Translations under genes and position numbers: made by a program | In this document: positions 2,396 to 62,607 of the stretch, piece after piece | Position numbering within the stretch: position 1 is the stretch's first letter | Layout: every line of letters starts with the position of its first letter | Origin: Desulfobulbaceae bacterium | GTDB taxonomy: Bacteria; Desulfobacterota; Desulfobulbia; Desulfobulbales; SURF-16 | Direction of reading: 5' to 3' | Assembly: GCA_024637145.1 (NCBI GenBank) | Contig: JAGXFQ010000034.1 | Coordinates: 1-64,000, forward strand | DNA length: 64,000 bases | Notes under the pieces: model-generated | What the model saw: only the letters and a program-made list of their open reading frames with translations | Database searches by the model: none | Told to the model about the DNA's origin: nothing

Positions 2396-2554
2396 TGGGG
2401 AGGGGAGGCGGCGGTGCGTTGGGCCGGCCGAGGACAGGAAAACGGCGTTGTGTCGATTTCCACGACGCGATCTCTACGAACATTATGGGCTGCTGAAGGT
2501 TTCCGGGAAAGCGGGTTGGGGATTGACGCATGCGTTGGCGTGAAGAACATCGGA

Positions 2555-2698
2555 AAGCCGGATGCGGGAAAACCGCACGTCCGGTTTGATGAGGGGAGGT
2601 TGATGAGCGAACATGTCGGTAGACACGTAGTAGCCGCGTGCGGCGAGGCGTCAAATAAAAGTCCTGACCATGATCGGGAAGTCAGCTTCCTACTCTAC
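2555..2698 (+). ncRNA. Group II intron 3' remnant (domains V and VI)
   Basis: Positions 2555-2587 fold as a domain V hairpin. The lower stem AGCCGGA (2556-2562) pairs with TCCGGTT (2580-2586) and includes the catalytic AGC triad with its G-U wobble. There is a two-base CG bulge at 2578-2579, an upper stem TGCGG/CCGCA and a GAAA-containing loop. A domain VI stem follows (GGAGGTTG 2595-2602 with CAGCTTCC 2683-2690) and then TACTCTAC, a typical intron 3' end. I find no reverse transcriptase ORF or domain I, so this is a truncated intron. It sits in the TA island, whose islands are common targets of such elements. Confidence 0.65.
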
Positions 2699-9599: not shown

Positions 9600-10877
9600 A
9601 TGTCAAAATTAGTAGCCCCCCATGGTGGTAAAGGACTTGTTTGTGCCCTGTTACACGGTAAAGAGCTTGCCGCTGAAATCGAAAGAGCAGCCGGGCTGAA
9701 AAGAATCGACGTCAGTGATCGCGCCAAAGGCGACTTGATCATGATGGGCATCGGTGGTTTCTCTCCACTGACTGGTTTCATGAAAAAGGCGGACTGGAAA
9801 AACGTTTGCGAGAAATTCCAGATGGCTGACGGTACCTTCTGGCCCGTCCCCATTACCCTGGACGTTGATAAGGCTGAGGCCGATTCCCTCAAGCTGGGTG
9901 ACGAGGTTGCTCTCTATACCAAAGGCGAGCTCATGGCCACCATGAAGATCGAAGAAAAGTATGAGATGACCACCGCTGACAAGAAGTGGGAATGCGAGAT
10001 GGTTTTCAAGGGTGAAGGCGAAGAATCTGTCGATGGCAAGTTCTGGGAAATCGCTCCCAAGGATCATCCCGGCGTTATCATGGTTCAGAACCAGAAAGCC
10101 TTTAACATTGCCGGTCCTGTCAAGGTCCTCTCCCAGGGCGAGTATCCCACCGAGTACAAAGGTGTCTACCTCACTCCTGCTGAGACCCGTGCCATCTTTG
10201 AAGAGCGCGGTTGGTCCAACGTTGCTGCCCTGCAGCTCCGTAACCCCATGCATCGCTCCCACGAGTATCTGGCCAAGATCGCCATTGAAGTATGTGACGG
10301 CGTGCTGATCCATTCCCTCATCGGTAACCTCAAAGCAGGCGATATTCCTGCCCCTGTCCGCGTTAAGGCCATTGATATCCTCATCGAGAACTACTTTGTG
10401 AAGGATAACGTTGTCAACGCCGGTTATCCCCTTGATATGCGTTATGCCGGTCCTCGCGAAGGTCTGCTCCACGCCACCTTCCGTCAGAACTATGGTGTCA
10501 ACAACATGCTGATCGGTCGTGACCACGCTGGTGTTGGTGACTTCTACGGCCTGTTTGAGGCTCAGGAAATCTTTGAGAAGATCCCCACCACCGGTGACGC
10601 TGCTAAGGATCTGCAGTGCAAGCCCATGAAGATCGACTGGACCTTCTACTGCAAGGAATGTGATGGTATGGCTTCTCTGCGTACCTGTAATCACAGCAAA
10701 GAGTCCCGCGTTATTCTTTCCGGTACCAAGCTGCGTAAGGCCCTTTCCGAAGGTGCTGAGATCGTTGACCACTTCGGCCGTACCGAAGTTCTTGATCACC
10801 TGAAAACCTACTATGCCGGCCTCACCGAGAAGGTCGAGGTGAAGATGCAGGGTGCTGCTTCTGGTAGCTCCATGTAA
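9600..10877 (+). CDS. sat: Sulfate adenylyltransferase (ATP sulfurylase)
   Basis: This cytoplasmic enzyme makes adenosine 5'-phosphosulfate from sulfate and ATP, the activation step of dissimilatory sulfate reduction. The 425-residue protein carries [11 protein letters not shown] at about residues 204-214 (the QxRNPxHxxHE ATP/sulfate site), GRDHAGVG near 304 and a C-terminal [13 protein letters not shown] that matches the Cys cluster of dissimilatory sat proteins. AAGGAG precedes the ATG. It is monocistronic, between its own promoter (9386-9413) and a strong terminator (10907-10956). No aprBA or qmo genes adjoin it here. The less GC-rich, regular codon usage suggests high expression. Confidence 0.98.
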
Positions 10878-10906
10878 GAAGCCAGCTTTTTAAGCTGATT
10901 TTCTCT

Positions 10907-10956
10907 GCATAAAAAAAGGGAGACGTCTTTTTAAGACGTCTCCCTTTTTTTTATGC
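10907..10956. terminator. Long palindromic terminator after sat
   Basis: From 10907 to 10956 the sequence is almost a perfect palindrome: GCAT, an A-run, GGGAGACGTC, a short loop, GACGTCTCCC, a T-run and ATGC. It works as a Rho-independent terminator for sat and, by symmetry, in the opposite direction. Confidence 0.93.
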
Positions 10957-60913: not shown

Positions 60914-60928
60914 GGGTACCCTGCTTTA

Positions 60929-60988
60929 AAACCACAAAGGCACAAAGACACAAAGAAAAAACTCTGTGCCTTTGTGCCTTTGTGTTGA
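60929..60988. repeat. Hairpin with CACAAAGG periodic arms
   Basis: The left arm has three 8-base CACAAAGR units (60932-60955), and the right arm has TGTGCCTT units (60965-60985). They are near-perfect reverse complements with a short A-rich loop. The element lies between adk and trmFO and could stop transcription from either side. Its units are almost those of the element at 11772-11867. Confidence 0.7.
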
Positions 60989-61026
60989 GAAAAAACGGTG
61001 AGCCTAATAGCGTCAGCCTTCAGCCT

Positions 61027-61674
61027 TTAAATTCCCAGCTCTTTCTTGATGCCGTTAACCACGGCGTCACTGGAGGTGCCGGTGATGGTCTTCAGCAGGC
61101 CTTTCTTCTCGTAGAAGCCGGCCAGGGGCGCGGTTTTCTCATTATAGGTGTCCAGGCGATGGGCAATGGCCTCTTGGGTCTCATCGGCCCGCTGCACAAT
61201 GGGGCTGCCGCACTTGTCGCAGATACCCTCTTTCTTGGGGGGCATGCTCTTGACGTTGTAAATGGCCTGACACTTGGTGTTCTCGCAGGTGCGGCGGGTG
61301 CAGAGCCGGTCAAAGATGACGTCGCGGGGCACATCGATGTTGACCACCATGTCCAGGCTGATGTCCAGCTTGGCAAGGAGTTCTGTGAGGGCCTCGGCCT
61401 GGGGAATGGTGCGGGGGAAACCGTCGAGCAGAAAACCTTTTTCACAGTCATCTTCCTGCAGGCGTGCTTCCATGATCCCCATGATCAGGCTGTCTGGGAC
61501 CAGGTCGCCGCGGTCCATGTAGCCTTTGGCCTCTTTACCGAGTTCACTGCCGGCCTGCACAGCGCCGCGCAGGATGTCGCCGGTGGAGATCTGGACGGAG
61601 CCGTCGAGTTGGGTGAGTTGTTTGGCCACAGTGCCTTTGCCGGCACCGGGGGCGCCTAAGAGAATAATTTTCAT
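61027..61674 (-). CDS. adk: Adenylate kinase
   Basis: Adk equilibrates ATP, AMP and ADP. The 215-residue protein has the P-loop MKIILLGAPGAGKGT, the AMP site STGDILRGAV, GFPRTIPQAEAL, and a long LID with a zinc-type Cys set (CTRRTCENTKC...CDKCG), as in many gram-positive and deltaproteobacterial Adks. The ATG at 61674 has GGAGG 8 bases upstream; the open frame runs back 106 codons into the small-RNA unit and that extension is not used. The final codons are KKELGI. Confidence 0.98.
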   Translation of the reverse strand: MKIILLGAPGAGKGTVAKQLTQLDGSVQISTGDILRGAVQAGSELGKEAKGYMDRGDLVPDSLIMGIMEARLQEDDCEKGFLLDGFPRTIPQAEALTELLAKLDISLDMVVNIDVPRDVIFDRLCTRRTCENTKCQAIYNVKSMPPKKEGICDKCGSPIVQRADETQEAIAHRLDTYNEKTAPLAGFYEKKGLLKTITGTSSDAVVNGIKKELGI

Positions 61675-61860: not shown

Positions 61861-62003
61861 AAAAAAAGACCGATGCTTGGGAGGAGCATCGGTCTTTTCC
61901 ACCTTCCTTGCAGAAGGTGAGGAGAGAAAAAAATGAAGAAAGGAGAGCATGCATTTGTATGCAGACTTAAAATAAAGAGTTCCCCCGGGCAAAGAGGTTC
62001 CGT
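61861..62003 (-). ncRNA. Candidate small RNA, tandem copy 1
   Basis: Read on the minus strand, the unit ends in a perfect intrinsic terminator: GACCGATGCT and AGCATCGGTC pair around CCTCCCA (61868-61894) and a run of seven T follows (61861-61867). Before it lies a second perfect hairpin, CACCTTC/GAAGGTG (61901-61920 region), a CT-rich stretch with CTCCT motifs, and a small TGCAT/ATGCA inverted repeat. The loop CCUCCC is complementary to Shine-Dalgarno sequences, as in multicopy CCUCCUCCC-type sRNAs of Alphaproteobacteria. The promoter is not identified. The other two copies lie at 62159 and 62464. Confidence 0.6.
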
Positions 62004-62158
62004 GTTTTTTTCCATTGAGCCAAACTTTTCTCGCCGTCTAAAAGAGAGCGCCCCACAAGGGGGCCTGCTCTTGCTTCCGGCAGACGGCAGAGGCCTGCTG
62101 CTGGTGGCAAGATCGGTTTCAATAAGAAGGGCGCGGCCGCTGCGTGCTTAAAAGGCAT

Positions 62159-62303
62159 AAAAAAAGGTCGATGCCAGGGAGGGGGCATCGACCTTTTCCA
62201 CCTTCCTTGCAGAAGGTGAGAGGAGAAAAAAATGAAGAGAGGAGTACATGCATTTGTATGCAGTCTTAAAATAAAGAGTTCCCCTGGGCCAAGAGGTTCC
62301 GTG
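62159..62303 (-). ncRNA. Candidate small RNA, tandem copy 2
   Basis: Same layout as copy 1. The terminator stem here is GGTCGATGCC/GGCATCGACC with loop CCCTCCCT and a seven-T run. Compared with copy 1 three base pairs have changed on both sides (A-T to G-C, C-G to T-A and T-A to C-G), so pairing is kept. The CACCTTC/GAAGGTG hairpin is unchanged. The intervening CT-rich region differs by small substitutions that leave its length about the same. Confidence 0.6.
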
Positions 62304-62463
62304 TTTTTTTATTTCAGGCAGAATTTTTCTCACCAGGGAAATAAAAGAGAGTGCCCCGCCAGGGGACCTGCCGGCGGAAGAAGGCCGGGGCAGGGGCACG
62401 GCGTTGTGGTGTCAAAAAAAAGGCCTCTTTGCAGAGGTGGCTGCTGCTTGGCTGAAAAGGCAT

Positions 62464-62607
62464 AAAAAAAGACCGATGCTTGGGAGGAGCATCGGTCTTT
62501 TCCACCTTCCTGGCAGAAGGTGAAGAGGAGAAAAAAATGAAGAAAGGAGTGAATGCATTTTATTGCAGTCTTAAAATAAAGAGTTCCCTCTGGCCAAAGG
62601 GTTCCCG
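62464..62607 (-). ncRNA. Candidate small RNA, tandem copy 3
   Basis: Same layout. The terminator is identical to copy 1 (GACCGATGCT stem, CCTCCCA loop, seven T). The second hairpin CACCTTC/GAAGGTG has a changed loop base only. One base is added in the CT-rich region, which would shift any minus-strand reading frame relative to copies 1 and 2. This argues against a peptide and for an RNA. No further copy is seen beyond 62607. Confidence 0.6.

What the first reader, a model, noticed from the sequence alone, without database searches (positions are those of the whole stretch)
61861..62607. Three tandem copies of a minus-strand small RNA with an anti-Shine-Dalgarno terminator loop
Three units of about 144 bases recur every 300 bases (61861-62003, 62159-62303, 62464-62607). 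On the minus strand each ends in a perfect intrinsic terminator with loop CCUCCC(A/U) and seven U. Copy 2 has three compensatory base-pair changes in that stem. A second hairpin CACCUUC/GAAGGUG and CU-rich CUCCU motifs are kept. A frame-changing base in copy 3 argues against a peptide, and the plus-strand frame shows mostly non-synonymous changes. The layout recalls the multicopy CCUCCUCCC-loop sRNAs of Alphaproteobacteria (cuckoo/alpha-r15 and CcsR types), but this is a different lineage and no family member is known to me here. On the plus strand the same loops present GGA motifs, so a CsrA-binding sponge is an alternative.
Basis: partly seen in the sequence, partly recalled or inferred. Interest (0 to 1): 0.85.

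Follow-up and report, generated by a model that had tools for sequence, protein, structure and literature searches.

The report
Tandem envelope-stress small RNA genes
Three near-identical small-RNA genes stand in a row in this sulfur-cycling bacterium, each with its own stress-type start signal and stop signal; they belong to an undescribed RNA family that probably shuts off production of exported and outer-membrane proteins when the cell surface is under stress, in bacteria where the usual helper protein Hfq was not found.

Summary
Three tandem minus-strand units end in perfect intrinsic terminators with CCUCCC loops. Two corrections: the first ~33 bases of each unit are most likely a promoter (GGAAC, about 17 nt, then TC), and the RNA is ~108 nt, three hairpins around a ~26-nt unpaired CU-rich strand. 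That strand is the reverse complement of a Shine-Dalgarno, A-rich spacer and AUG-AAG-AAA start region. A covariance model found relatives in 20 of 22 genomes of the family and in others of the order, often as arrays of 2-5 copies; all three helices show compensatory changes. No Rfam family reaches threshold (ar14 35 of 58.8 bits; CcsR1 24 of 65.3). The promoter motif also lies at an RpoE-like ECF sigma gene. No Hfq was found in 22 family genomes. The best complementary sites in relatives are mostly starts of exported proteins: TonB receptor, efflux protein, putative porins, multihaem cytochromes. Best explanation: multicopy sigma-E-type sRNAs that repress envelope-protein synthesis at the start codon; in role like MicA/RybB and FoxI/FoxJ, in anatomy like LhrC, with homology to none of these shown. 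Expression and targets are untested; unbiased target enrichment was modest.

The parts
61861..61968 (-). sRNA copy 1 (about 108 nt; 5' end inferred)
   Evidence: CM hit 155.6 bits (model built partly from it); three-hairpin fold
61974..62001 (-). ECF-type promoter motif of copy 1: GGAAC 62001-61997, -10-like CTCTTT 61979-61974
   Evidence: sequence; in homologues GGAAC-N17-GTC or GGAACCTTT-N14-TCTTA
61920..61945 (-). unpaired CU-rich strand of copy 1, reverse complement of SD-A7-AUGAAGAAA
   Evidence: fold; region 91% identical between genomes versus 31% for the H2 loop
61861..61899 (-). terminator hairpin of copy 1, loop CUCCUCCC, U7
62159..62267 (-). sRNA copy 2
   Evidence: CM hit 143.5 bits; fold
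62273..62300 (-). ECF-type promoter motif of copy 2
   Evidence: as copy 1
62219..62242 (-). unpaired CU-rich strand of copy 2
62159..62198 (-). terminator hairpin of copy 2 with three compensatory changes
62464..62572 (-). sRNA copy 3
   Evidence: CM hit 152 bits; fold
62578..62605 (-). ECF-type promoter motif of copy 3
   Evidence: as copy 1
62523..62550 (-). unpaired CU-rich strand of copy 3
62464..62502 (-). terminator hairpin of copy 3
61027..61674 (-). adk (adenylate kinase), downstream neighbour; order array-adk-trmFO kept in relatives; not part of the sRNA unit
   Evidence: ORF; tblastn synteny; sigma-70-like promoter 61777-61749 between array and adk

Best explanation
The array is three independently transcribed copies of a trans-acting small RNA. 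Each copy is switched on by an RpoE-like ECF sigma factor, presumably when its membrane anti-sigma factor senses envelope stress. Each ~108-nt RNA folds into a short 5' hairpin, an open CU-rich strand, a second hairpin and a CCUCCC-loop terminator. The open strand, helped by the C-rich loops, pairs with the Shine-Dalgarno plus AUG region of mRNAs for exported and outer-membrane proteins and blocks ribosome entry. Several copies raise the dose. Shown here: copies, structure with covariation, a promoter motif shared with the sigma gene, distribution, no Hfq found. Inferred: transcription, sigma dependence, the stress signal, targets and repression.
For: Covariation: in ten close copies 8 pairs have two-sided changes and 94.5% of cells pair, versus 34-54% when slid; 0/500 shuffles reach the paired percentage. 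In 49 copies 27 of 29 pairs have two-sided changes (alignment fitted to the model). Relatives in 20 of 22 family genomes, arrays of up to five. The CU strand and terminator loop are 91-92% identical between genomes while the promoter spacer (46%) and H2 loop (31%) drift. GGAAC begins 48 of 49 copies, and 44 of 49 have GGAAC-N14-19-TC. Of 19 strict GGAACCTTT-N13-15-TCTNA sites in 22 genomes, 16 are sRNA promoters and one precedes the ECF gene (my tally). The motif lies near the ECF start in 15 of 15 orthologues and 117 nt upstream, non-coding, in three genomes. The sigma factor is RpoE/SigW-like, next to an anti-sigma-like gene. The complement pattern has 76 sites against 31 for the reversed control; of the non-sRNA ones about 38 open frames of 100 aa or more, nearly all exported-looking by eye, including a TonB receptor, OEP, DUF3373 and multihaem cytochromes. 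A Gcw_chp-like protein recurs in six genomes with predicted duplexes of -24 to -30 kcal/mol to that genome's own sRNA.
Against: No transcript data. In a ~16% sample of the window's genome, complementarity to start regions is only modestly above shuffles (copy 3: 0/100 shuffles reach the mean; copy 1: 12/100) and signal-peptide genes are not favoured. Target sites were picked by pattern, so exported MKK starts are partly built in. In the window copies the -10 reads CTCTTT rather than GTCTTA, and no strict motif occurs in this genome. In the window's genus the motif at the ECF gene overlaps an open hydrophobic frame. The covariance model contains GGAAC, a mild circularity. The strict motif as a whole is not enriched over its reversed control (36 vs about 38).
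Confidence: 0.66

Rival explanations
1. A minus-strand sRNA family with general anti-SD loops (cuckoo/CcsR-like in action) working on metabolism or general stress, not on envelope proteins, perhaps under another sigma factor.
For: CCUCCC loops, multicopy layout, weak ar14/CcsR1 scores; the unbiased sample shows no exported-gene preference.
Against: RpoE-type motif shared with the ECF gene; CAU conserved inside the CU strand (29 of 49 copies have CAU, pyrimidine run, CUCC-type motif versus about 3 expected); best sites in relatives are exported-protein starts.
Confidence: 0.2
2. A plus-strand GGA-rich RNA that sequesters CsrA.
For: GGA motifs lie in loops and in the purine-rich strand of the plus strand.
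Against: The promoter motif and the longer U-tract are on the minus strand in all copies; G-U cells on the minus strand exceed A-C cells 39 to 26 (weak); the H2 loop is the least conserved part.
Confidence: 0.04
3. A cis-acting leader or attenuator of the downstream adk gene.
For: The array precedes adk in the same direction in ten loci with a full-length adk.
Against: Each unit has its own promoter motif and terminator; a sigma-70-like promoter lies between array and adk; loci in G009, G006, G011, G018 and G019 have no full adk within the flanks held.
Confidence: 0.05
4. A small peptide gene on either strand (plus-strand MKKGVNAF..., minus-strand MHSLLSSFF...).
For: Good SD and ATG on the plus strand in every close copy, as expected if the minus strand mimics the complement of a start region.
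Against: The plus frame runs 14 to 77 codons with little shared beyond the first eight residues; hairpin-loop and U-run length changes break the frames; compensatory stem changes.
Confidence: 0.03

Closest known systems
MicA / RybB / MicL (Escherichia coli)
   Same: Small RNAs of the RpoE (sigma-E) regulon that repress outer-membrane protein mRNAs (PMC12249550)
   Different: Single copies and Hfq-dependent (established knowledge); no family of this kind reached its Rfam threshold here
FoxI / FoxJ (Fusobacterium nucleatum)
   Same: sigma-E-dependent sRNAs with C-stretch seeds that repress envelope proteins in a bacterium lacking Hfq; promoter boxes shared with rpoE (PMC11005410)
   Different: Not a tandem array of one RNA; different phylum; no homology shown
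LhrC1-5 (Listeria monocytogenes)
   Same: Multicopy 111-114-nt RNAs, each with three redundant CU-rich sites in a stem-loop, a single strand and the terminator; envelope-stress induced; acts on a surface-protein mRNA without needing Hfq (PMC4132741)
   Different: Induced by the LisRK two-component system, Gram-positive; no LhrC match in the Rfam scan
CcsR1-4 / ar14 / cuckoo RNAs (Alphaproteobacteria)
   Same: Hairpins with CCUCCUCCC anti-SD loops, often several copies (PMC3927594; PMC10253847)
   Different: CcsR1-4 are cut from one ccaF1-CcsR transcript behind an RpoHI/RpoHII promoter; here each copy has its own promoter motif and terminator; bit scores are below gathering

Membership tests
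Rfam ar14 (RF02344) | score at or above gathering, 58.8 bits | tested here: not met
   35.2, 30.0 and 23.8 bits for copies 3, 1 and 2
CcsR / cuckoo (RF02791) | score at or above gathering, 65.3 bits | tested here: not met
   at most 23.6 bits
CcsR / cuckoo | cotranscription with a DUF1127 gene and processing from one precursor | tested here: inconclusive
   each copy has its own terminator and promoter motif; neighbouring ORFs were not scanned for DUF1127
LhrC (Rfam) | covariance-model match | tested here: not met
   no LhrC match at E up to 5 in the array
sigma-E-dependent sRNAs (functional class) | RpoE-type promoter shared with the sigma gene | tested here: met
   GGAAC-N-TC in 44 of 49 copies and near the ECF start in 15 of 15 orthologues; the -10 is weaker in the window copies, and it is a motif match, not a mapped promoter
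sigma-E-dependent sRNAs (functional class) | expression depends on the sigma factor | not testable with these tools
   no expression data
sigma-E-dependent sRNAs (functional class) | base-pairs with envelope-protein mRNAs | tested here: inconclusive
   strong predicted duplexes in relatives; modest unbiased enrichment
Hfq-dependent sRNAs | Hfq present in the host | tested here: not met
   PF17209 not found in 22 of 22 family genomes, 15 of them at least 90% complete

The most novel reading that the evidence does not exclude
A new RNA family in which an Hfq-less lineage runs the RNA arm of its sigma-E response through tandem arrays of sRNAs that carry a near-complete antisense of an exported-protein start region (SD, spacer, AUG and MKK codons), so that one RNA can silence a set of signal-peptide genes without that chaperone, with the dose set by copy number.
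Probability: 0.4. Interest if true: 0.8.

Novelty: new variant of a known kind. Interest (0 to 1): 0.62.

Why it matters
I found no paper on sRNAs of Desulfobulbales in the held library. A sigma-E sRNA arm in a lineage without detectable Hfq would parallel Fusobacterium and suggest that RNA brakes on envelope-protein synthesis arose repeatedly. Tandem copies with independent promoters offer a natural test of why bacteria multiply sRNA genes, and the predicted multihaem cytochrome targets would tie envelope stress to electron transfer in sulfur-cycling bacteria.

Tried and rejected
Rfam at gathering thresholds: nothing in the array. Plasmid collection: no match. An apparent covarying hairpin at the 5' end of the window copies (GGAACC...GGGGAAC) was dropped when homologues showed a promoter motif there. 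A generic anti-start-region model: the genome sample gave only modest enrichment and no signal-peptide preference. One pattern hit in an Intestinimonas MAG (L096) is taken as chance: no model match. Window 10877-10951 (33.7 bits) and three reverse-strand hits are terminator-like hairpins without the rest. A second ECF gene (L107) shows no GGAAC-N-TC motif just upstream of it. A sample of 395 genomes of the phylum gave no member outside the window's family.

Full report
OBSERVATION. On the minus strand each ends in a perfect hairpin with a CCUCCC loop and a U7 tract. Three compensated pairs distinguish copy 2.

RELATIVES. A DNA search found two copies in each of three congeners and one in a genome of another family of the order. 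A covariance model from ten copies found matches in 62 of 258 genomes of the order, including 20 of the 22 genomes of the window's family (best E 4e-8 or lower in each). Arrays reach five copies in G018, whose contig is deposited as Desulfurivibrio sp. SURF_16. Single matches outside the family with E above about 1e-5 should not be trusted on their own. A sample of 395 genomes of the phylum gave hits only in the window's family at E 1e-5. NCBI places Desulfurivibrio in Desulfobulbales.

ANATOMY. All ten close copies fold alike: 5' hairpin, about 26 unpaired CU-rich bases, second hairpin, terminator. Pair counts support the three helices: on a sequence-only alignment of the close copies 94.5% of cells pair, 8 pairs have two-sided changes, and none of 500 shuffles is as high (the terminator stem carries 6 of the 8). 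With 49 copies 27 of 29 pairs have two-sided changes (that alignment was fitted to the model and leans towards it). The CU strand and terminator loop are the most conserved unpaired parts (91-92% between genomes); the H2 loop (31%) and promoter spacer (46%) are the least.

PROMOTER. Each unit starts with GGAAC and, 14-19 nt on, TC (44 of 49); in the wider family it is typically GGAACCTTT-N14-TCTTA. From established knowledge this is the RpoE-type consensus (GGAACTT, then GTCTAA). The genome has an RpoE/SigW-like ECF gene followed by an anti-sigma-like gene (scores are below the equivalog cut-offs). A GGAAC-N-TC motif lies near its start in 15 of 15 orthologues and 117 nt upstream of it, clearly non-coding, in G009, G011 and G017. 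Of 19 GGAACCTTT-type strict sites in 22 genomes I count 16 at sRNA copies and one at the ECF gene; the GGAACTTTT variant is mostly background, and the whole strict pattern is not enriched over its reversed control. Caveats: in the window's genus the ECF motif overlaps an open hydrophobic frame, and the window copies have CTC instead of GTC.

TARGETS. The CU strand CUCCUUUCUUCAUUUUUUUCUCUCC is the exact reverse complement of GGAGAG-A7-UGAAGAAAGGAG, that is an SD, an A-rich spacer and AUG-AAG-AAA. Several of the strongest partial matches in the first BLAST searches were already starts of exported genes. Searching the complement in the family gave 76 sites versus 31 for the reversed pattern, about 14 being the sRNA genes themselves. 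About 38 others open frames of at least 100 codons, nearly all with signal-peptide-like starts by eye (no signal-peptide predictor was available). Pfam confirms a TonB receptor, an OEP efflux protein, DUF3373 and multihaem cytochromes; the Gcw_chp match is below its cut-off. Duplexes with each genome's own sRNA are strong, but these sites were chosen by complementarity. The unbiased test, 260 confident start regions from about 16% of the genome, is weaker: copy 3 beats all 100 dinucleotide shuffles, copy 1 does not, and signal-peptide genes are not favoured, although genes whose second codon is Lys are (P 0.009-0.05). So specific envelope targets are likely; a universal anti-start RNA is not shown.

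HFQ. Not found in 22 of 22 family genomes, while control genomes are positive.

CONTEXT. The array lies upstream of adk and trmFO in ten loci, but arrays also occur without a full adk in the flanks held, and a sigma-70-like promoter lies between array and adk here, so it is unlikely to be an adk leader.

HOW IT WORKS. Steps shown: repeated genes, structure under selection, terminators, a promoter motif shared with the ECF sigma gene, phylogenetic range. Steps inferred: envelope stress frees the ECF sigma factor, all copies are transcribed, the CU strand and loops pair with start regions of exported-protein mRNAs, translation falls.

LITERATURE. LhrC (PMC4132741), CcsR (PMC10253847), the CCUCCUCCC RNAs of Rhizobiales (PMC3927594), the sigma-E sRNAs of E. 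coli (PMC12249550) and of Fusobacterium (PMC11005410) are the nearest systems. The passages read of an ncRNA survey in a sulfate reducer (PMC11124144) showed nothing like it. No paper on sRNAs of Desulfobulbales was found in the held library; subscription papers are mostly missing there.

Noticed in passing
window 60918-60999: Near-perfect 38-nt inverted repeat of CACAAAGGCACAAAG-type units between trmFO and adk; a similar hairpin lies near a copy in L022.
   Followed up: no
L108-L114, L118 (ECF sigma loci): The ECF sigma frame has a conserved hydrophobic in-frame N-terminal extension (MELFFLLAPLLLI...) whose ATGGAACTT codons overlap the promoter-like motif.
   Followed up: partly
L080 1801-1932; L098 4588-4719: Only a 44-residue adk-like fragment (59%) lies beside the array in G019, an apparent adk remnant.
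   Followed up: no
window 62039-62068 and 62342-62371: GC-rich hairpin repeated upstream of copies 1 and 2 (degenerate at copy 3), part of a longer duplication unit.
   Followed up: no
window 2553-2698: Rfam group II intron match, 53 bits.
   Followed up: no
L214 and L225: RpoE-type motif in front of a lipoprotein gene (MKHAKKIYMTTALVLALAF...) in two genomes of genus g5, a possible further regulon member.
   Followed up: no
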